From Allobrachymonas sp. (lineage in GTDB: Bacteria; Pseudomonadota; Gammaproteobacteria; Burkholderiales; Burkholderiaceae), in NCBI GenBank assembly GCA_030529305.1, contig JAUMXD010000002.1:1-41315 (forward strand): a stretch of 41,315 bases of DNA, in the 5' to 3' direction. Both the position numbers and the translations under genes were made by a program. The first letter of the stretch is position 1; the number at the start of each line of letters is the position of its first letter. Positions 32,489-41,134 of this stretch are shown here, in pieces. The notes beneath the pieces are model-generated. The model made no database searches. It was not told the DNA's origin and worked only from the letters and a program-made list of their open reading frames with translations.

Positions 32489-32965
32489 TCAAACGTAACG
32501 CACATCCACAATTTCGTAGTGGCGGGTACCGGCTGGAGCTTCAACCACAGCGGTGTCGCCTGCGTACTTGCCGATCAGCGCACGGGCAATGGGGCTGCTC
32601 ACGTTGATCAGTCCCAGTTTGAGGTCAGCTTCGTCTTCGCCCACGATCTGGTAGGTGATCTGCTCGCCAGAGTCTTCGTCTTCCAGATCAACCGTGGCAC
32701 CAAACACCACGCGGCCATCGGCATCGAGCGTGGCAGGGTCGATGATTTGCGCAGCGGCGAGCTTGCCTTCCACCTCTTTGATGCGGCCTTCGATGAAGCC
32801 CTGGCGGTCTTTGGCGGCATCGTATTCGGCGTTTTCGCTCAAGTCGCCGTGCGAGCGCGCCTCGGCAATGGCCGCGATCACGGCTGGGCGATCTTGCGTT
32901 TTGAGGCGATGCAATTCGGCCTTGAGTTTTTCTGCGCCTTTGAGGGTCAGGGGAATGGTGCTCAT
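32489..32965 (-). CDS. greA: Transcription elongation factor GreA
   Basis: Rescues backtracked RNA polymerase by stimulating transcript cleavage. 158 residues from ATG 32965 ([15 protein letters not shown]), with GGAG nine bases upstream. The N-terminal coiled coil carries the catalytic tip acidic residues in [16 protein letters not shown], and the C-terminal FKBP-like domain has [31 protein letters not shown] in part. Thirteen codons of open frame upstream lie in the leader hairpin region and are not used. A terminator-like hairpin in the leader is listed separately. Confidence 0.96.
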
Positions 32966-32976
32966 GGGAAAACTCC

Positions 32977-33009
32977 AAAAGAAAAACCGCCAAGCAAAAA
33001 GCAAGGCGG
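32977..33009 (-). terminator. Terminator-like hairpin in the greA leader (possible attenuator)
   Basis: Reading toward greA: CCGCC (33009-33005), a 13-nt loop with an inner GC pairing, GGCGG (32991-32987), then TTTTTCTTTT (32986-32977). It ends 12 nt before the greA ATG and overlaps its ribosome-site region. Transcripts stopping here would be about 60-70 nt. Confidence 0.6.
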
Positions 33010-33051
33010 ATTATTTAATGTGCTTGTTAGAGGATGCTGTAGCCTTTGTGC

Positions 33052-33077
33052 ATTATATATAAAAATGTATGCGTCAA
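33052..33077 (-). promoter_or_regulatory. Candidate greA promoter
   Basis: On the minus strand TATAAT (33057-33052) preceded by TTGACG (33077-33072); the 14-bp spacer is short, so regulation or a different -35 is likely. Confidence 0.5.
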
Positions 33078-33173
33078 GACACATGCTCTGGATGGATAAA
33101 AACAAACTGCCAAGGGGCTTGCAATCTGCCTGTTCTTTCCATCTTTCATCTTCTTACTTGCCACAAAAAATAT

Positions 33174-33195
33174 CTTATAAAATTGCAACTATAAG
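33174..33195. repeat. Inverted repeat upstream of the TonB receptor gene
   Basis: Perfect 6-bp arms CTTATA / TATAAG with a 10-nt spacer, ending 28 bp before the start codon. Possible regulator site; it does not read as a classic Fur box. Confidence 0.35.
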
Positions 33196-33223
33196 TTTCT
33201 TCGTGTCATAAAGGAGATTGTTT

Positions 33224-35398
33224 ATGCCCTCTCACCTGTTTACGCGTTGCTTTGCTGCATCCCTTTGCTGTGCATACTGTGTTGCCGAAGCACAAGAAAT
33301 CAACACGCTTCCCATCACAAAAGTTCAAGCACACAGGCCGTCTCCTGGAGAAATTGATTTGGATGTGCCAACAAATACTGGCAGTCGGCTGGGGCTAAGC
33401 ATCAAGGAAACACCCGCTTCCGTTTATCAAGTAGATCGCTTCACAATGGAGGCACGGGGTGATCGAACCACTCATGAGGCACTAAGGAATATGCCTGGTG
33501 TTCATGACGCCAACAAACCAAATGTAGGAGGCTCCCTGAGCTACCGTGGTTTCAGTGGCGCTCAAATCACTCACCTGTTCAATGGCACTTCAGTTCAATT
33601 CGATATGATAGCGGGGCGACCAGTAGATAGCTGGATTTATGATCGAGTTGAGTTAATAGGCGGGCCTTCTAGTTTTTTATATGGAGCAGGTGCAGTAGGA
33701 GGATCTGTTAATTACATAACTCGCTTACCCCAACGCAGCAATGCATATGAAGGCCTGTTGCGCTTGGGATCAAACGGTACGGCTCAAGCCGCTGTAGGAT
33801 TAAATCATGTCATCACTGGCGACTCCAAGCTGGGGAATTTTTTCCGACTGGATGCAAACGTAAAACGCAATCGCAGTCGCATGCAGGGCAATGTCAATAA
33901 CAGCCAGCAAATTGCCGCATCACTTTTATCTGACTTGACACCCAAACTCACGCATACTCTTGCATTGGAGTATCAGCATGAAAAAATAAACAGCCCATAC
34001 TGGGGAACCCCTTTGCTTAATCCACGTATAGGCAAAGGAAAAATAATTGAGGGAACGCGCTACAAGAACTACAACTCGATTGACGGCAGATACGAGCAAA
34101 AAATTAAATGGGCCAGATCTGTTCTTGACTATCGTTTGTCAGATGAAGTCAGTATAAAAAACACCCTCTATCATTACAACGCTCAACGTGATTATGAGAA
34201 TGTTGAAGCATATCGCCTGACACCCGACAATAAGCGTATTGTTCGCAATGAGGCTATTCTGCAACGGCACAAACAAAAACTTGTCGGAAACAGAACAGAA
34301 GTTTTGGCCCAAACCCATCTGGGAAAAATGAAGAGCGATTGGCTTTTCGGTGTTGATTATAGCCTCAACAAGCAAACGAGATTCCCTTATATTCTAAATG
34401 CCGAAGTAAGCACAGTCGATCCTTACGACTTTCAAACAGAAAATTTTTATGACATTCCTGGTATGAGGCAACAGTATAATCCAGATCGCACAGTAAGGGT
34501 TCGCACATTAGGCTTGTTCGCAGAAAATCGTACGAAGCTTGCGCCTTCGCTCTCTTTATTAAGTGGCTTGCGTCATGATCGCATTAAGATTGACTTAAAA
34601 AATCATCGTGCGATTAACGCGAATAACCCTGATAAATTCACTCGTCACTATGCTGCAACCACAGGACGAGTCGGTTTAATGTGGGAGATCAACCCATCAT
34701 CCAATGCTTATTTGCAATACTCTATGTCGGCAGATCCACCCTCTGGAATGCTGACTACAACAAGCTTTGGTCAGGCACGCACAAATACCGATTTGAGTAC
34801 TGGCAAGCAATTTGAAATTGGTAGTAAATTCAAATTACTGGACGGTCGTGCAACGGGAACGCTGGCAGCTTATCACATTGTGCGAAAGAATTTAGCCACA
34901 CGCGACCCATCCAATCCACAACAAACCATTTTGGTTGGGCAACAGTCTTCTCACGGTATAGAGCTTGCAGTGGATGCCCAGCTTACTAAGCAGCTAAGGG
35001 CTCAAGCCAATATGGCCTTTGTCAACCCCAAATTTGATAATTTCACAGAAATTGTTAAAGGAAAGCCTGTGTCGCGGGTTGGTAACATACCAAATAATAC
35101 ACCACGCAGTATAGCTAATATCTGGCTCAATTACGCATTCAAGCCTGGATGGAATGCATCTATGGGCGTGCGTAGAGTTTCAAGCGTGTATGGCGATAAT
35201 GCCAATACAATCAAAGCACCTGCTTACACTTTGCTGGACTTTGGCTTGGATTACAACTACAGTAAAAATCTAAAATTCAGAGCCAATCTACGAAATGCCA
35301 CCAATAAGCTTTATGCCAATAATATAACACATTCGCGCATGTTCTATTTGGGAGAGCCTCGTAGCTTTGATGTTTCAATGCGACTTAATTTCCAATAG
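33224..35398 (+). CDS. TonB-dependent siderophore/metallophore receptor
   Basis: Outer-membrane beta-barrel that imports a metal chelate using TonB energy. 724 residues from ATG 33224, with AAGGAG seven bases upstream. It has a signal peptide (cleavage near VAEA-QE) and a TonB-box-like LPITKVQA. The plug domain shows TTHEALRNMPGV, RGFSGAQITHLFNG, YDRVELIGGPSSFLYGAGAVGGSVNYITR; the barrel follows, ending RSFDVSMRLNFQ. The order of plug motifs fits the FhuA/FpvA-like siderophore group. The base composition is more AT-rich than the core genes. No sigma regulator or FecR partner adjoins it. The convergent ABC operon is the likely inner-membrane partner. The ligand is unknown. Confidence 0.92.
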   Translation: MPSHLFTRCFAASLCCAYCVAEAQEINTLPITKVQAHRPSPGEIDLDVPTNTGSRLGLSIKETPASVYQVDRFTMEARGDRTTHEALRNMPGVHDANKPNVGGSLSYRGFSGAQITHLFNGTSVQFDMIAGRPVDSWIYDRVELIGGPSSFLYGAGAVGGSVNYITRLPQRSNAYEGLLRLGSNGTAQAAVGLNHVITGDSKLGNFFRLDANVKRNRSRMQGNVNNSQQIAASLLSDLTPKLTHTLALEYQHEKINSPYWGTPLLNPRIGKGKIIEGTRYKNYNSIDGRYEQKIKWARSVLDYRLSDEVSIKNTLYHYNAQRDYENVEAYRLTPDNKRIVRNEAILQRHKQKLVGNRTEVLAQTHLGKMKSDWLFGVDYSLNKQTRFPYILNAEVSTVDPYDFQTENFYDIPGMRQQYNPDRTVRVRTLGLFAENRTKLAPSLSLLSGLRHDRIKIDLKNHRAINANNPDKFTRHYAATTGRVGLMWEINPSSNAYLQYSMSADPPSGMLTTTSFGQARTNTDLSTGKQFEIGSKFKLLDGRATGTLAAYHIVRKNLATRDPSNPQQTILVGQQSSHGIELAVDAQLTKQLRAQANMAFVNPKFDNFTEIVKGKPVSRVGNIPNNTPRSIANIWLNYAFKPGWNASMGVRRVSSVYGDNANTIKAPAYTLLDFGLDYNYSKNLKFRANLRNATNKLYANNITHSRMFYLGEPRSFDVSMRLNFQ

Positions 35399-35445
35399 TT
35401 TCTTATGCGCATATTCTAATATTTGGCATTCTAAATTGCTCTTAA

Positions 35446-35474
35446 CCCTTCCTTTTGCCAAGCAGAAGGAAGGG
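35446..35474. repeat. Strong hairpin between the convergent receptor and ABC operon
   Basis: CCCTTCCTT / AAGGAAGGG (9 bp) plus an inner TGC / GCA pair. There is no poly-T tract on either side, so termination would not be of the classic intrinsic type. Confidence 0.5.
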
Positions 35475-35537
35475 ATACAATAACTTATCTTAATCCATCA
35501 ATCTGAGTAGATTGTTGTAAAACATTAATCAACAATA

Positions 35538-36317
35538 TTACGCTATTCTTTTATTTTTAAACTTTGGAAATACGCCGAAATCATTCATTGAACATATATT
35601 TCCATAAAGAATGTTTAGAGCTGAAATATCCATTACACTTTCCACTGGACCCGATTTTATAATTTCACCATTATTCATGACTACAACATTATCGCAAAAC
35701 CAAATGATATGATTGGGATCATGAGTACATACTATGATAGTTTTTTCTCGCTCTTTTAACTCGTTTAAAATAGTCCATAAATTAATTTGATTTCTAAAAT
35801 CCAAAGCGGATGTAGGCTCATCAAGAATCATGATTGGTGTTTCTTGAGCTATAGCTCTGGTAATAAGAACCAATTGTCTTTGGCCTCCGGAGAGATTGGT
35901 GTACGCCCTAAAAGCCATATCCATTATGCCTGTTTCTTTTAGCGCTTTTTCGCATATTTTTATATCTTTCAGAGAGGGGGCAAAAATAGCACTCATCCCT
36001 GGATTTCTTCCCATGAGAACCATCTCATATACTTGATAAGGGAAAGAGGCACCATGCTCCTGAGGAACGAAAGAAATGAATTTTGAAGTTTCCAGGGGGC
36101 TGAAAGTTTTTAAGTTTTTTTCGTTGAGACGAATAGCCCCCTTATAATTTTTAAAAATATTTGCCAAACACTTAAGAAGAGTTGTTTTTCCACATCCATT
36201 TGGCCCGAAGATGCCGGTTATTTTATTTTTTTCAAATTTTAATGAAACTTCGTTCAAAATCTTTGTTTCTTTATCATAGAAGAAACTTAAGTTCTCCACA
36301 TTAAGAACGCTTTCCAT
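35538..36317 (-). CDS. Iron-complex/metallophore ABC transporter ATP-binding protein (FecE/BtuD type)
   Basis: Cytosolic ATPase of a type II importer for siderophores, heme or corrinoids. 259 residues: Walker A GPNGCGKTT, signature LSGGQRQLV, Walker B IMILDEPTSALD, and H-loop CTHDPNHI. It starts one base after the permease stop. Very AT-rich codon use. It is the last gene of the operon; transcription converges on the TonB receptor. Confidence 0.92.
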   Translation of the reverse strand: MESVLNVENLSFFYDKETKILNEVSLKFEKNKITGIFGPNGCGKTTLLKCLANIFKNYKGAIRLNEKNLKTFSPLETSKFISFVPQEHGASFPYQVYEMVLMGRNPGMSAIFAPSLKDIKICEKALKETGIMDMAFRAYTNLSGGQRQLVLITRAIAQETPIMILDEPTSALDFRNQINLWTILNELKEREKTIIVCTHDPNHIIWFCDNVVVMNNGEIIKSGPVESVMDISALNILYGNICSMNDFGVFPKFKNKRIA

Positions 36318-36318
36318 G

Positions 36319-37365
36319 CTAATACATCTTTCTTTTTGATCTCAATAAGTAAACCAAGTAAGGAGAACCCAAAAGGGATGTTATTATGCTTATTGGTATT
36401 TCCCCCATAATAATAGTTCTAGCCATTGAGTCGCATGCTATCATAAAAGAAGCGCCAAAAAGACAGGTTATAGGTATTAAATATCTGTGATCTGCACCTG
36501 ATGAAATCCTGGTAATATGTGGGATCATTAGCCCTATCCATGAAATGATTCCAACTTGTGACACTGAAGTTGAGCAAAGCAAAGTTGCTATCAATATAAG
36601 AGTAGCCTTGACGAATTCAATATTTATACCTAGAGATTTTGCTTCTTCATTTCCCATTGTAAGTATATTCAACTTCCAAGAAAAGGCTAAAGAAATAATA
36701 AACCCAAAAATAAAAATAGGAAGAAGCTTTAAAACAGACTTTGAGTCCGATGTGTAAAATCCACCCATCAGCCAAAACGAAATTTCTCTAAGACTTGAGT
36801 CGGAAGATATGATTTTTAAATAATTGAGAGCCGATGTAAAAATGGAGGAGACTATTAGGCCTGCTAAAATCAAATTAATCAAAGGTGTCGACTTGTTTTT
36901 TGTCGCTATAAAATAGGCTATAACCATTGCCAATATTGAGAACAAAAAGGATGAAACCTCAATAGGAAGAAGTCCGAAAACTATTGAAAATGCAGCGCCG
37001 CATGCAGCTCCGGAGGATATGCCCAAAACATAAGGCTCAACTAAGGGATTTCTAAACACCCCTTGAAACAAAAGTCCAGACAAGCTCAAAGATGCCCCCA
37101 CCAGTGCACTCATTAAGATCCGGGGGGTTCTTACATTTAAAATAATTGAAACAGAATTTTCGTCATGGATTTCATTGGCTTTAAGAAAAAGTGATTCATA
37201 TATAGATAGTATTTCGTTTATTTTTATCTTATAGTTCCCCTGGCTGGTTGCAAAGACAGCTATTCCTATCAGAGACAAAAATAATAAAAATATATATCTC
37301 CTCTTCTTTTTTTGAAGAGATATGATCTTTTCGGAAAACGATTTATCATTTTCAAGCATGGACAA
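36319..37365 (-). CDS. Iron-complex/metallophore ABC transporter permease (FecCD/BtuC type)
   Basis: Inner-membrane permease that works as a homodimer in type II importers. 348 residues with about ten helices. Family segments NVRTPRILMSALVGASLSLSG, FRNPLVEPYVLGISSGAACGA, WLMGGFY, MIPHITRISSGADHRYLIP and GEIPISIITSLLGSPYLVYLL are present. The start is TTG 37365 with GGAGA six bases upstream; ATG 37359 is the alternative. It directly abuts the methyltransferase stop codon. Confidence 0.92.
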   Translation of the reverse strand: MSMLENDKSFSEKIISLQKKKRRYIFLLFLSLIGIAVFATSQGNYKIKINEILSIYESLFLKANEIHDENSVSIILNVRTPRILMSALVGASLSLSGLLFQGVFRNPLVEPYVLGISSGAACGAAFSIVFGLLPIEVSSFLFSILAMVIAYFIATKNKSTPLINLILAGLIVSSIFTSALNYLKIISSDSSLREISFWLMGGFYTSDSKSVLKLLPIFIFGFIISLAFSWKLNILTMGNEEAKSLGINIEFVKATLILIATLLCSTSVSQVGIISWIGLMIPHITRISSGADHRYLIPITCLFGASFMIACDSMARTIIMGEIPISIITSLLGSPYLVYLLRSKRKMY

Positions 37366-38157
37366 TTAACGTCTCCAATGGATTTGCGTATATTTAGTTT
37401 CATCTTTATAAATGTATCCTTTTTCTTTTTTTAGATATGTTTCTTCTATGTAGCTCTTGATAGAACCATCAAATACATTTGTTTTTATTTTATATCTTGA
37501 TTTTATAAAATCAAGCGCACTCTCAATTGTCTTGTGATATCTATTGAAATGTGTATTTTCTAAAATATTGACATCCGGATTTATATTGAAGCATCGTAAA
37601 ATTTCACATATGATATCCGACTTGTTTAATTTGTCTTTATAATTTTTTCCAAGGATGTCATATATAGCCTTCTGCTCTTTTTCCCAAGACGTGAGACCTG
37701 AAAACCAAAATATATAACAGTGATCTTTGCTTGAGTTATTAATTTTCAACAAAGCTTCTGAAATATTCCTCATGATTAAAGAGTAAGAGGCAATAACTGC
37801 ATCAAATTGAAAAGAAAGCACTGTTTCTTCCCATTTTTTGTTGATAATTTCAATATTTTTTATGTTTTCTTGATCAATGTGAAGTTTTAGATGCTTCACC
37901 ATTTCCAGAGAAGGTTCTACTGCAACAACTTTTTTTACAATTCTGGAAAGAGGCAGTGAAAGCACACCTGGACCCGAGCCTATATCCAAGACGGTATAGT
38001 GCTTTGGAAAGTTGAAATTATTAGCTCGAATTATTCCGTCTTGCCGGATGAGATTTGAGTTATTGTAGCTCCTAGCCTCTTTAGGATCATCGTACAGGTT
38101 TTCAATCTCTTCATCCAATGATTCGTTCCAGATAGCGTCTAGCTTCTTTATATCCAT
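37366..38157 (-). CDS. Class I SAM-dependent methyltransferase embedded in the metal-uptake operon
   Basis: 263 residues. The Rossmann-type fold shows motif I VLDIGSGPGVLSLPL, the acidic end of strand 2 (VAVEPSLEM) and a motif-IV-like FDAVIASYSL. The N-terminal lead (IWNESLDEEIENLYDD) and the C-terminal third, Lys/Tyr-rich, match nothing I can name. The gene sits between the binding-protein gene (2 nt away) and the permease gene (no gap), so it is co-transcribed with the importer. The substrate is unknown. A role in modifying the imported chelate or a corrinoid-like ligand is inference from context alone. Confidence 0.82.
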   Translation of the reverse strand: MDIKKLDAIWNESLDEEIENLYDDPKEARSYNNSNLIRQDGIIRANNFNFPKHYTVLDIGSGPGVLSLPLSRIVKKVVAVEPSLEMVKHLKLHIDQENIKNIEIINKKWEETVLSFQFDAVIASYSLIMRNISEALLKINNSSKDHCYIFWFSGLTSWEKEQKAIYDILGKNYKDKLNKSDIICEILRCFNINPDVNILENTHFNRYHKTIESALDFIKSRYKIKTNVFDGSIKSYIEETYLKKEKGYIYKDETKYTQIHWRR

Positions 38158-38159
38158 AG

Positions 38160-39320
38160 TTAAAAACCATATTTTTCCATCCAGCCCAAGAGCTGTGCTT
38201 CCTTTATTTCCTTTGCCTTCTCTTCATTTAGAGCATATAATTTTTTATGGTATTCGTCTACATACTGATTTACATGGAAGTCAGCAAATTTTTCTGGATA
38301 AGCAGCTTTAGCCGAGATGCTTAAAATGACGGGAACCTCAAGCCTCCAGTCTCCCCACCACGTTAGAAGCCCCAAGGATGCGATTCTGTTATTTTTTATA
38401 GCGCTGATACTTGAAATGTTTTTGTATTCCTCTTTCTTCAAGATATCAATAGTTGGAACAACAGAACTTGTACTAAGCACAATAACATCAGGATTTAAGC
38501 TAATCAACTGCTCTGCCGACATTTTTGTTTTTTTACGCTCGCTATAGGCATTTTTAATTCCTGCATACTCTCTTACAAACTTCGCATCACCCGTATCTTC
38601 ACCCCAAACAGAACCAACCTCTTTCCCTTTGAGAAGACTGATATACATAACTTTAGGCTTATCTTCTTCTTTTATTTCAGACACTCTTTCCTGAATGAAA
38701 TTAACCTGTTCCTTCATTAGATTTATTATTTCACTTGCCCTTTCGGATTTGTTAAAAACCTCTCCAAGAAGTGTGATTCCCTCGTAATGTTTTTGAAGCT
38801 CAACTTTTTCATAATACCCTGATCCATTTATTACTACAAGAGGTATTTTTAGTTGATCTTCTATTGTCTCTATCGCTTTTTTTGTTATTTCGCTATTTTT
38901 TATATACTCGGAGTTTCTTAAAATCACAAGATCAGGTTTGCTGGCCACTATAGCCTCAAAATCAACGGCGCTCATGGGGTAACCAACAACTGGCAAGTCA
39001 TAAACCTCTGGGAACAAAACAGTTGTATCTCTTTTTTCTTTTTTTAGTTTTGAATCTATAATGCCGCCCGTTGCAACTATTTTCTCCTTCAGATTCATTG
39101 CTATCATGTTTTGAAGCACAAATCCTTTGTCAATAATTACGACTCTTTTTGGATCCTTCGGAATAGATATTTTTTTGCCTCGCATATCCGTAACTTCTTT
39201 TATTTCTTGGGTGATATGCTTTTCCCCGCTTACTGATTGCTGTTGACCTGAGCAGCCCATAAGGCAAGCAAAGATGATGATAGACGCAGCACAGCCAAAT
39301 TTTTTCACTTTATTAAACAT
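38160..39320 (-). CDS. Iron-complex/metallophore ABC transporter substrate-binding lipoprotein
   Basis: 386-residue binding protein of the FecB/BtuF class (cluster A). The lipoprotein signal has lipobox LMGC (Cys23). A TDMRGKKISIPKDPKRVVI segment opens the first lobe, SKPDLVILRNSEY and NPDVIVLSTSS mark the two lobes, and a long linker helix and a C-terminal WWGDWRLEVPVILSISAKAAYPEKF segment follow. The ribosome site GAGGTGA before ATG 39320 is strong. It is the first gene of the operon, downstream of the 30-bp palindrome at 39384-39413. Ligand identity cannot be read from sequence. Confidence 0.9.
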   Translation of the reverse strand: MFNKVKKFGCAASIIIFACLMGCSGQQQSVSGEKHITQEIKEVTDMRGKKISIPKDPKRVVIIDKGFVLQNMIAMNLKEKIVATGGIIDSKLKKEKRDTTVLFPEVYDLPVVGYPMSAVDFEAIVASKPDLVILRNSEYIKNSEITKKAIETIEDQLKIPLVVINGSGYYEKVELQKHYEGITLLGEVFNKSERASEIINLMKEQVNFIQERVSEIKEEDKPKVMYISLLKGKEVGSVWGEDTGDAKFVREYAGIKNAYSERKKTKMSAEQLISLNPDVIVLSTSSVVPTIDILKKEEYKNISSISAIKNNRIASLGLLTWWGDWRLEVPVILSISAKAAYPEKFADFHVNQYVDEYHKKLYALNEEKAKEIKEAQLLGWMEKYGF

Positions 39321-39738
39321 AAATCACCTCAATCAATATTAATAATAAGCAGATTTTCCTGGCAAGAAGTTTCTTCTTAATGGAATCATAAAAATATCAA
39401 TATTTTTATGATTATCGGGCAAAAAATAATGATTGATTCTCTAAAATTGATAGAGATCAGAATACTCTAAAAAAAATCTGGCTTTTGCTTGAGAAAGCGA
39501 ACCGCAAGAGTGTGTGCTTTTCTTGGATTTTCTCACAAAATGCAAGAATTGTCATCTTTGAGCAATACTTTGTTAATTTAGCTCAATGCGGTACGCATAG
39601 GCATTTACATAAGTCTGCTGGTAGCTACTATTGGCAAAAAGTAACCCATACTAGTTAATTTACCCGAAAGATTGCAACGCTGACATTGCACCTTAAGCGC
39701 TACGATGAGGCAATCCTCGCATGCGGCACAGCGGCTGT
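39321..39738. other. Intergenic region upstream of the metal-uptake operon
   Basis: About 420 bp of AT-rich DNA without a credible ORF. It holds the large palindrome at 39384-39413 and presumably the operon promoter. The composition returns to GC-rich near 39700, marking the apparent right edge of the island. Confidence 0.6.
39384..39413. promoter_or_regulatory. 30-bp palindrome, probable operator of the ABC operon
   Basis: Perfect 14-bp arms AATCATAAAAATAT / ATATTTTTATGATT separated by CA, 64-93 bp upstream of the binding-protein start. Size and position suit a dimeric metal-responsive repressor. It does not match the Fur, NikR or DtxR site patterns I know, nor the TTTAGG operator at 4380. 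Confidence 0.65.
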
Positions 39739-40101
39739 TTACTCATGCGGGTTTTGCTCCAGCTTGTTGAGCAACGCCTGAATGCGCTCGGGCGCAATGC
39801 GTTTTTGCATGAGCTGGATCAGGCCATCGCCTTCGATCATGGGGCGCAGCACGGCCACTTCGGCTGGGTAAAAGCGCACGTCCCAGTCGTTCAACTCTTT
39901 GTCGAACTCTTCATCCGACCAGTTTTTGCACTTGGCCAAGCAATACACCAGGGGCATGGCCTTGTTTTCGAGGAAAGATTTTTTATAAGGCTTTTGCTGC
40001 CAGCGGTTGGCAAACCAGTCCTTGTGCTCGGCCTCCAGCGTCAGCATGCGTTTGTTGATGGCTTTTTCAAGCGATGCGAGGGGAAAACTATAGAGTTTCA
40101 T
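39739..40101 (-). CDS. Hypothetical protein, 120 residues
   Basis: A small soluble protein with no signal peptide or membrane segment. It begins MKLYSFPLASLEKAINKRML; notable are WFANRWQQKPYKKSF, YCLAKCKNWSDEEFDKELNDWDVRFYP and a C-terminal helix rich in Leu, Gln and Glu. Codon use is GC-rich like the core genome, unlike the island next to it. No domain is recognised. No clear ribosome site. Confidence 0.6.
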   Translation of the reverse strand: MKLYSFPLASLEKAINKRMLTLEAEHKDWFANRWQQKPYKKSFLENKAMPLVYCLAKCKNWSDEEFDKELNDWDVRFYPAEVAVLRPMIEGDGLIQLMQKRIAPERIQALLNKLEQNPHE

Positions 40102-40291
40102 GGACGGGGCTCAGTTCAGGTTGTTGTGTGAGGTGTGGTTGATATTCAATGCTCGAACTTACACCATTGTTTGTATCAATTTGCAGAAAGGCATCGTTCT
40201 CTGCCAATATCTGTGCGATTTTTGCCGAAAAAATGGCTGCGATGACGCCTAGGGTACACAGCTTCTATGCGCACTCGGCGATTGACTCGAT

Positions 40292-41134
40292 TCAGCCTGC
40301 GGGCGATGCACCTGCTTGAACACACGCACTGGCATGCAGGCAAATGGCAGCGGCTGCGGCTACGTTGAGCGATTCTTCCCCGCCCGGCTGGGCAATGCGC
40401 ACCATCAAGCTGGCCTGCTGCACCAAGCTGCTGGCTACGCCCTGCCCTTCGTGCCCAAACACCCAGGCGCAGGGCGATGGCAAAGCGGCCTGATGCAGCA
40501 GACGCTGCCCCTGCAGATGCGTAACGAGCAGGGGCACTTGCAATTGCTGTACTTCATTCAGCGTGGCGTTTTCAAACAGGCGCAAAGCAAAATGCGCCCC
40601 CATGCCTGCGCGCAGCACCTTGGGCGACCACAACGCCGCCGTGCCCTGCAAAGCCAAAACCTGTTTAAAGCCCAGCGCGCTGGCGCTGCGCAAAATGGAG
40701 CCGACATTGCCTGCATCCTGAATGCGGTCAAGGATGACGGTGTTGGCGGCTGGGTCGATGGCCATGTTGGCCTGCGGCAGCGCTGCCACATTCAGCACAA
40801 AACCCATTTGCGCCGCCGATGGCAATGCGCTCAATTGGGCAAAAAGCGCATCATCCAGCACATGGATGTTCGATAGTTTGGGCAACAGGGCCTGCCAGCT
40901 GGCTGCGCTGCACGCCCACAGGCTGTGGCTGAACAGGGCCGCTTGCGGCTGTAGGCCACGATCCAAAGCGGCCCGGCAGAGGTGATCGCCTTCGATCCAG
41001 AGCTTGCCCAGCTTGCGATAAGCCGCTGGTTCATGGGCCAGTTTGCGCAGGGATTTGAACAGGGCGTTGTCGCGCGAGGTGATGGGCAGCACCTTGGCCC
41101 CGGCATGCTTGGCGTTTGTGCTTGTTTTCGTCAT
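40292..41134 (-). CDS. TrmH/SpoU-family RNA 2'-O-methyltransferase
   Basis: Predicted SAM-dependent ribose methylase of rRNA or tRNA. 280 residues: an N-terminal RNA-binding part (ITSRDNALFKSLRKLAHEPAAYRKLG in part), then the SPOUT motifs VILDRIQDAGNVGSILRSASALG, CAWVFGHEGQGV and RIAQPGGEESLNVAAAAAICL. It is distinct from the rlmB-like gene at 22.7 kb. Its ATG overlaps the rnhB stop (ATGA), a neighbour pair that is common in Burkholderiales as I recall it. The exact target nucleotide cannot be assigned. Confidence 0.88.
   Translation of the reverse strand: MTKTSTNAKHAGAKVLPITSRDNALFKSLRKLAHEPAAYRKLGKLWIEGDHLCRAALDRGLQPQAALFSHSLWACSAASWQALLPKLSNIHVLDDALFAQLSALPSAAQMGFVLNVAALPQANMAIDPAANTVILDRIQDAGNVGSILRSASALGFKQVLALQGTAALWSPKVLRAGMGAHFALRLFENATLNEVQQLQVPLLVTHLQGQRLLHQAALPSPCAWVFGHEGQGVASSLVQQASLMVRIAQPGGEESLNVAAAAAICLHASACVQAGASPAG

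What the first reader, a model, noticed from the sequence alone, without database searches (positions are those of the whole stretch)
35538..39320. SAM methyltransferase built into a siderophore-type ABC import operon
Gene order is binding lipoprotein, methyltransferase, permease, ATPase, with gaps of 0-2 nt, so the methyltransferase is an obligate co-product of the importer. FecBCD-type operons normally hold only transport genes. An enzyme at this position could modify the imported chelate to release metal, or act on a corrinoid or metallophore. This is the best candidate here for an undescribed functional unit.
Basis: partly seen in the sequence, partly recalled or inferred. Interest (0 to 1): 0.72.

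Follow-up and report, generated by a model that had tools for sequence, protein, structure and literature searches.

The report
Metal importer operon carrying a methyltransferase
A four-gene bacterial operon for importing a chelated trace metal contains a methyltransferase, and the same pairing of this enzyme family with metal importers recurs, patchily, in distantly related bacteria and archaea, which suggests an undescribed chemical step in taking up metals such as nickel.

Summary
On the minus strand lie a binding lipoprotein, a class I SAM methyltransferase, a FecCD permease and an ATPase, with gaps of 2, 0 and 1 nt. Gene GC is 32-37% between flanks near 60%, so the operon looks acquired. 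Genome G001 holds it at the same site. dN/dS of the four genes is 0.07-0.12.

The methyltransferase reaches no named NCBIfam cut-off. Its family recurs beside importers: of 79 hits in 32 genomes, 32 lie within 4 kb of a FecCD permease (chance at most 1.4) and 18 beside an Opp/Nik-type binding protein (at most 1.5). The importer type changed several times on the enzyme tree. Among 53 related loci searched, 3 carry molybdenum/tungsten and 2 cobalamin riboswitches near the enzyme. In one Spirochaetota lineage the cassette follows larE-, larC- and larB-like genes.

Best reading: an importer for a chelated trace metal, most likely nickel, with an enzyme that methylates the imported ligand. Recurrent linkage and selection are shown; metal, substrate and chemistry are inferred. 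A copper-type TonB receptor next door and enzyme-free relatives of the transporter argue for caution.

The parts
38160..39320 (-). substrate-binding lipoprotein of the FecB/BtuF class (386 aa; lipobox LMGC seen by eye)
   Evidence: PF01497 78 bits; nearest solved chains by sequence 4ovk, HI1472 (3psa), 2etv; 86% identical in G001
37366..38157 (-). class I SAM-dependent methyltransferase (263 aa), SAM motif VLDIGSGPG
   Evidence: PF13649 40 bits, PF00398 39 bits; no NCBIfam cut-off reached; AF2 model pLDDT 95, pTM 0.90, class I methyltransferase fold
36319..37365 (-). FecCD-family permease (348 aa)
   Evidence: PF01032 284 bits; nearest solved chain HI1471, 204 bits
35538..36317 (-). ABC ATPase of the FecE/BtuD class (259 aa)
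   Evidence: PF00005 102 bits; FecE model 203 bits, below its cut-off of 375
39385..39412 (.). 28-bp palindrome 64 nt upstream of the first gene, possible operator
   Evidence: one match in the window, 0 in 100 shuffles; its outer 9-nt arms with the same 28-nt span lie at the same place in G001 (L132 18062-18089) and in none of the other 161 loci; the inner part is not symmetric in G001
33218..35398 (+). convergent TonB-dependent receptor of the CrtA type (726 aa from the TTG; an ATG at the third codon is a likelier start); possible outer-membrane partner, link not shown
   Evidence: 797 bits over nearly the whole length to PDB 9rvq, the copper-chelate receptor CrtA of PMC12914433; His358, essential there, aligns with His351 here (counted by hand)

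Best explanation
The operon encodes a complete type II (FecBCD-like) ABC importer for a chelated trace transition metal, most likely nickel, with a dedicated cytoplasmic methyltransferase acting on a small molecule. Proposed working: the lipoprotein captures the metal chelate, permease and ATPase move it into the cytoplasm, and the methyltransferase methylates the ligand (a donor N, O or S group), lowering its affinity so that the metal is handed over or the ligand is not rebound. Shown: intact operon, foreign composition, purifying selection on the four genes, and recurrent linkage of this enzyme family to importers of two unrelated architectures. Inferred: co-transcription, the identity of the metal, that the substrate is the imported ligand, and that methylation serves release.
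For: Linkage: 32 of 79 family hits within 4 kb of FecCD and 18 of 79 near SBP_bac_5, chance at most 1.4 and 1.5. Exchange of partner: FecCD and Opp labels need 7 and 6 changes on the tree, at least 4 forced by well-supported branches, so the enzyme seems to follow the cargo, not one transporter fold. Metal: seven genes, larE-, larC- and larB-like, then MT, binding protein, permease and ATPase, packed in L162 and in the same order in L161; the permease there is 43-44% identical to the window's. Three Opp-type binding proteins tested score best or second best to NikA (TIGR02294, 171-236 bits, cut-off 393). In the host genus, permeases at E <= 1e-80 occur in G001 and G005, two of the three genomes with ureG, and in none of the six without. 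Fold: near full-length matches to S-methyltransferases TmtA/GtmA and histamine N-methyltransferase. Selection.
Against: No activity, ligand or metal was measured. Relatives carry Mo/W riboswitches (L114, L115, L123) and cobalamin riboswitches (L124, L073), so the family is not tied to nickel. The convergent receptor is of a copper-chelate family. The lar linkage comes from two closely related genomes, one lineage, and larC was found in 0 of 8 host-genus genomes. The ureG link rests on nine genomes, several incomplete. Transporters of the same subfamily without the enzyme exist in the genus (L136, L134). Seen from the binding protein, 14 of its 72 relatives of 45% identity or more share a contig length with an enzyme relative. 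48 of 120 family members had no recognised ABC gene in their predicted operon, some on short contigs. The fold lists also hold protein and rRNA methyltransferases. Synonymous divergence from G001 is 0.73-1.10 in the operon against 0.37 in greA, so replacement or drift since the split is possible.
Confidence: 0.5

Rival explanations
1. The methyltransferase makes or tailors the chelator (a one-enzyme metallophore system): it methylates, or transfers an aminocarboxypropyl group to, a common metabolite to give the ligand that the importer recovers.
For: The enzyme pairs with NikA/CntA-like binding proteins, a class that in staphylopine systems works with a SAM-using synthase (recalled). Eight loci carry a second methyltransferase (PF00891) in the operon, and L018 another methyltransferase followed by a TonB receptor.
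Against: No synthase, opine dehydrogenase or exporter was recognised among the recurrent neighbour groups that I had scanned; only 9 representatives were scanned, so this is weak. The 12 MacB/FtsX-linked members are a group apart (the 11 in the tree form one clade).
Confidence: 0.27
2. The operon is a corrinoid importer and the enzyme remodels corrinoids.
For: A cobalamin riboswitch lies 540 nt before two family members and two FecBCD sets in L124. A source names the Methanofastidiosum binding-protein relative 'corrinoid ABC transporter substrate-binding protein'. The permease scores 247 bits to a BtuC model.
Against: That model's cut-off is 461. The nearest solved permease is HI1471, not BtuC. 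The family also sits in Opp/Nik-type operons, beside lar genes and near Moco riboswitches.
Confidence: 0.1
3. The receptor and the operon form one acquired copper-chelate uptake system.
For: Receptor 797 bits to CrtA with the essential His retained; receptor and operon are adjacent in both genomes.
Against: The receptor differs in composition (GC 0.44, GC3 0.41 against 0.31-0.34) and is convergent. CrtA loci are reported with PepSY_TM genes. I saw no copper gene among the relatives that I annotated, but did not search for one.
Confidence: 0.08
4. The methyltransferase is a passenger: a generic enzyme caught in the operon without a role in import.
For: Transporters of the same subfamily occur without it in the genus (L136, L134). 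Its substrate is unknown.
Against: Recurrence far above chance, repeated pairing with two importer types, dN/dS 0.117.
Confidence: 0.05

Closest known systems
FecBCD/BtuFCD/MolBCA type II ABC importers
   Same: Permease PF01032, ATPase PF00005, binding protein PF01497; nearest solved permease HI1471 and, second among solved binding proteins, HI1472
   Different: Contains a methyltransferase gene; cut-offs of the FecC, FecD, BtuC and FhuB models are not reached
DUF364/DUF4213 'heavy-metal chelation' proteins in metal ABC contexts (PMC2954201, passages read)
   Same: An uncharacterised protein recurrently next to metal ABC importers; a DUF364/DUF4213 gene (L128) and an FmdE gene (L126) lie just before the methyltransferase cassette in two similar loci
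   Different: Different family; not in the window operon
Lar nickel-pincer-nucleotide genes (function recalled)
   Same: In L162 and L161 the same kind of cassette follows larE-, larC- and larB-like genes
   Different: larC in 0 of 8 host-genus genomes searched
Cnt opine-metallophore systems (staphylopine, pseudopaline; recalled)
   Same: SAM-using enzyme coupled to a metal-chelate importer; Opp-type relatives score to the CntA model
   Different: No synthase or opine dehydrogenase match in the operon or its scanned neighbours; importer class differs in the window
ChuW-type anaerobic haem degradation (recalled, not tested)
   Same: Methylation coupled to metal release from an imported chelate
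   Different: ChuW is a radical SAM enzyme; this is a class I methyltransferase

Membership tests
Type II (FecCD/BtuC) ABC importer | FecCD permease domain | tested here: met
   PF01032 284 bits, cut-off 26.5
Type II (FecCD/BtuC) ABC importer | binding protein of PF01497 and an ABC ATPase in the same operon | tested here: met
Type II (FecCD/BtuC) ABC importer | known substrate class by equivalog model | tested here: not met
   all models listed for permease (16) and binding protein (8) are below cut-off, as are the 25 shown of 193 for the ATPase
Class I SAM-dependent methyltransferase | glycine-rich SAM motif and Rossmann-like fold | tested here: met
   VLDIGSGPG with D58, G60, G62, G64 invariant in 52 sequences; model and fold matches
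Class I SAM-dependent methyltransferase | methyl transfer activity | not testable with these tools
   none
Named methyltransferases (UbiG, UbiE, RsmA, RsmG, TehB, BioC, CpaM) | score at or above the curated cut-off | tested here: not met
   UbiG 42 of 103 bits; all 22 listed models below cut-off
Opine-metallophore (Cnt) system | nicotianamine-synthase-like CntL and opine dehydrogenase CntM in the locus | tested here: not met
   no such domain among the eight proteins scanned, 32489-41134; other parts of the genome not examined
MolBCA molybdate/tungstate importer | Mo/W ligand or regulation | tested here: inconclusive
   sequence similarity to HI1471 and HI1472; Moco riboswitches at 3 of 53 relatives' loci; only tRNAs matched in the window
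CrtA TonB-dependent copper transporter (receptor 33218-35398) | full-length similarity and the essential His358 | tested here: met
   797 bits, His351 aligned (PMC12914433)
CrtA TonB-dependent copper transporter (receptor 33218-35398) | PepSY_TM gene following (over 75% of loci in the paper) | tested here: not met
   the ABC operon follows; no PepSY match among the eight proteins scanned

The most novel reading that the evidence does not exclude
A general, undescribed route of trace-metal acquisition in anaerobes and their gene recipients: one family of class I methyltransferases, paired interchangeably with FecCD-type and Nik/Opp-type importers of Ni, Co and Mo/W chelates, releases the metal inside the cell by methylating the ligand.
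Probability: 0.3. Interest if true: 0.85.

Novelty: new variant of a known kind. Interest (0 to 1): 0.6.

Why it matters
How anaerobes free Ni, Co, Mo and W from chelates after import is, as far as I know, largely open. One enzyme family that recurs beside importers for different metals offers a direct genetic and biochemical handle, and would give a role to proteins now named only class I SAM-dependent methyltransferase. Ten searches of the held open-access library were made. Seven of them combined methyltransferase with transporter or metal terms; five of the seven returned no paper, and the listings (seven and one) show no title or abstract start that describes this pairing. Of all listed papers I opened two (PMC12914433, PMC2954201). 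The searches were narrow and subscription papers are not covered.

Tried and rejected
Housekeeping enzyme: not supported, no NCBIfam cut-off reached. Plasmid origin: no match among 72,556 plasmid records by protein or DNA. Nickel-pincer nucleotide itself as the substrate: unlikely for the window's lineage, since larC was found in 0 of 8 host-genus genomes (G002 not searched). NikR operator: the palindrome reads TCATA-N16-TATGA, the reverse of the NikR box as I recall it. Split larC in L161: I first read it as two genes; it contains an assembly gap of 100 N, so nothing rests on it. Promoter and terminator scan: no excess over shuffles. Donor: the nearest named relatives are Treponemataceae MAG proteins (MT 58%, PBP 67%), unnamed ones are slightly nearer, and no DNA of those contigs was fetched, so no donor is claimed. 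A search of the order of G683 (20 genomes) gave only G683 itself.

Counts. Operon tally (loci L001-L079, L112-L147 and the window): 120 family hits above 100 bits, the window and the G001 copy among them: FecCD 25, FecCD plus Opp 3, Opp 21, FtsX 12, binding protein only 9, ATPase only 2, none recognised 48; annotation by my own profiles and a 200-nt gap rule. The tree kept 112 of the 120 (length filter), of which 55 bear no label. Enrichment: 79 hits. The 12 genomes were picked partly because their loci were known to be linked (19 of 47 near FecCD, 27 near either). From, 7 of 8 hits were used there (the eighth, G068, is in the set), 25 of 40. The genome list was drawn up after the neighbourhoods of most of these loci had been seen, so choice could bias it: among the left-out genomes whose region I had seen, one region was Opp-linked (G650) and three showed no ABC gene (G756, G520, G453). 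Counting all 15 left-out hits as unlinked would give 13 of 47 near FecCD and 20 of 47 near either, still far above chance. The SBP list was cut by the tool and I entered only the entries that I judged near, so that count is a lower bound. Rfam was run on 53 of the 162 loci; besides the five riboswitches named it listed, away from the point, c-di-GMP, FMN, TPP, T-box, PYLIS and group II intron matches and tRNAs.
Full report
WHAT IS THERE. The window's minus strand holds four complete genes in the order binding lipoprotein (39320-38160), methyltransferase (38157-37366), FecCD permease (37365-36319) and ATPase (36317-35538), with gaps of 2, 0 and 1 nt. Pfam places all four above its cut-offs. No listed NCBIfam model reaches its cut-off for any of the four (for the ATPase 25 of 193 were shown), so no substrate can be named by homology. 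Gene GC is 0.32-0.37 and GC3 0.31-0.34, while greA on one side and the SpoU methylase on the other have GC3 0.68 and 0.71 (profile). The operon therefore looks acquired. A convergent TonB-dependent receptor (33218-35398) has intermediate composition (GC 0.44, GC3 0.41).

IT IS MAINTAINED. The window's own assembly is not held. The nearest held genome, G001, carries receptor and operon at the same site between greA and SpoU. Identities of the operon proteins are 80-90%, and dN/dS is 0.091 (ATPase), 0.079 (permease), 0.117 (methyltransferase) and 0.068 (binding protein), against 0.030 for greA and 0.090 for the receptor. Synonymous divergence in the operon is 0.73-1.10, against 0.37 in greA and 0.65 in the receptor, so the ratios are rough and replacement or drift since the split cannot be excluded. 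Sixty-four nt upstream of the first gene lies a 28-bp palindrome (39385-39412). It occurs once in the window and in none of 100 shuffles. Its outer 9-nt arms with the same 28-nt span sit at the same place in G001, amid diverged sequence, and in none of the other 161 fetched loci; the inner part is not symmetric there, and a strict palindrome finder did not report it in G001. It may be the operator; the regulator is unknown.

THE FAMILY TRAVELS WITH IMPORTERS, PATCHILY. A scan of the genome collection with an alignment of relatives gave 79 loci, and 36 further loci of 4.5 to 20 kb, six of them from the host genus, came from whole-genome searches. The family is rare in bacterial samples: 8 of 296 Spirochaetota genomes and 26 of 398 genomes of the phylum of L078 (titled Bacillota) at E <= 1e-30, and 4 of 394 genomes of the class of G068 at E <= 1e-25. 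I annotated the loci with profiles built from the loci themselves. Of 120 family members above 100 bits, 25 are in predicted operons with a FecCD permease, 21 with Opp-type genes, 3 with both, 12 with a MacB/FtsX unit, 9 with a binding protein only, 2 with an ATPase only, and 48 with no recognised ABC gene, some on short contigs. As a chance test I took 79 hits in 32 genomes with all FecCD permeases and the counts of oligopeptide-class binding proteins. 32 hits lie within 4 kb of a FecCD permease (at most 1.4 expected) and 18 near an Opp-class binding protein (at most 1.5); 47 are near one or the other. For the 32 hits first found by the phylum searches, 13 are near FecCD (0.54 expected) and 20 near either (about 1.3); the choice of genomes and a worst-case count are told under Tried and rejected. 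Same length is taken as same contig. These include a Treponemataceae MAG (MT 58%, binding protein 67% identical) and a Methanofastidiosa contig. From the other side the match is poorer: 14 of 72 binding-protein relatives of 45% identity or more.

On a tree of 112 members the FecCD and Opp labels need 7 and 6 changes, at least 4 of them forced by well-supported branches; the 11 FtsX members in it are one clade. The enzyme has been paired repeatedly with two unrelated importer architectures. I infer that it acts on what is imported, not on a particular transporter.

WHICH METAL. Evidence from relatives: (a) In two closely related Spirochaetota genomes the cassette follows a PP-loop ATPase gene (larE-like), larC (PF01969) and a PF00731 gene (larB-like), recalled as the nickel-pincer nucleotide genes. 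In L162 the seven genes are packed with one 3-nt gap or overlaps of 4 to 50 nt; L161 has the same order. The permeases there are 43-44% and the L161 binding protein 32% identical to the window's. (b) Three Opp-type binding proteins beside the enzyme score best or second best to NikA, below cut-off. (c) Molybdenum/tungsten riboswitches lie 91 nt before the enzyme in L114 and L115, and between enzyme and binding protein in L123. (d) Cobalamin riboswitches lie 540 nt before two family members in L124 and before an Opp operon ending in the enzyme in L073. (e) A DUF364/DUF4213 gene (L128) and an FmdE gene (L126) precede the cassette in two similar loci; DUF364 was reported near metal ABC importers in PMC2954201 (passages read). 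(f) A MinD-like ATPase recurs (L003, L005, L007, L015, L121, L122). In the host genus, permeases at E <= 1e-80 occur in G001 and G005, both with ureG; the third ureG genome, G002, is 62% complete, and the six without ureG have none. That favours nickel in this host but rests on nine genomes. G001 also holds a second importer of the subfamily with no methyltransferase visible (L134, cut by a contig end), and G005 one without it (L136).

AGAINST NICKEL. The neighbouring receptor matches the B. pertussis copper-chelate transporter CrtA over nearly its whole length (797 bits), including the histidine found essential there (PMC12914433: outline, passages and section 4 read). Whether receptor and operon work together is not shown; they differ in composition and are convergent. 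larC was found in 0 of 8 host-genus genomes.

MECHANISM. I commit to this: the importer brings in a metal chelate and the methyltransferase modifies the ligand in the cytoplasm so that the metal is released or the ligand is not rebound (0.5). The main rival is that the enzyme makes or tailors the chelator (0.27). Enzymes that process the imported ligand are common in importer operons (haem oxygenases, siderophore esterases, corrinoid amidohydrolase; recalled), and ChuW is a recalled precedent for methylation coupled to metal release. The literature searches and their limits are told under Why it matters.

VERDICT. As an importer it is a known kind; with a recurrent methyltransferase it is a new variant. 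The interest lies in the recurrence of the pairing across phyla, not in this single operon.

Noticed in passing
window 33218-35398: TonB-dependent receptor of the CrtA copper-chelate family, without the PepSY_TM gene usual for that family, next to the importer in two genomes.
   Followed up: partly
window 39385-39412; L132 18062-18089: 28-bp palindrome upstream of the operon, outer arms retained in G001; its regulator is unknown.
   Followed up: partly
window 39739-40101: 120-aa protein without any Pfam or NCBIfam match; 94% identical in G001.
   Followed up: no
L008, L009, L011, L013, L022, L024, L025, L031, L032, L037, L042, L068: In Methanomicrobiales the enzyme follows a Yip1 - CARDB-like - ATPase - FtsX/MacB unit; function unknown.
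   Followed up: no
L003, L006, L014, L017, L020, L027, L029, L036: A second methyltransferase group (one member scanned: PF00891 with dimerisation domain) in the same predicted operons.
   Followed up: partly
L006, L007, L015, L016: Two or more binding proteins for one permease-ATPase pair in methanogen cassettes.
   Followed up: no
L018 11033-13668: Desulfobacter cassette followed by a further methyltransferase (DVU_1556-like, below cut-off) and a TonB-dependent receptor.
   Followed up: partly
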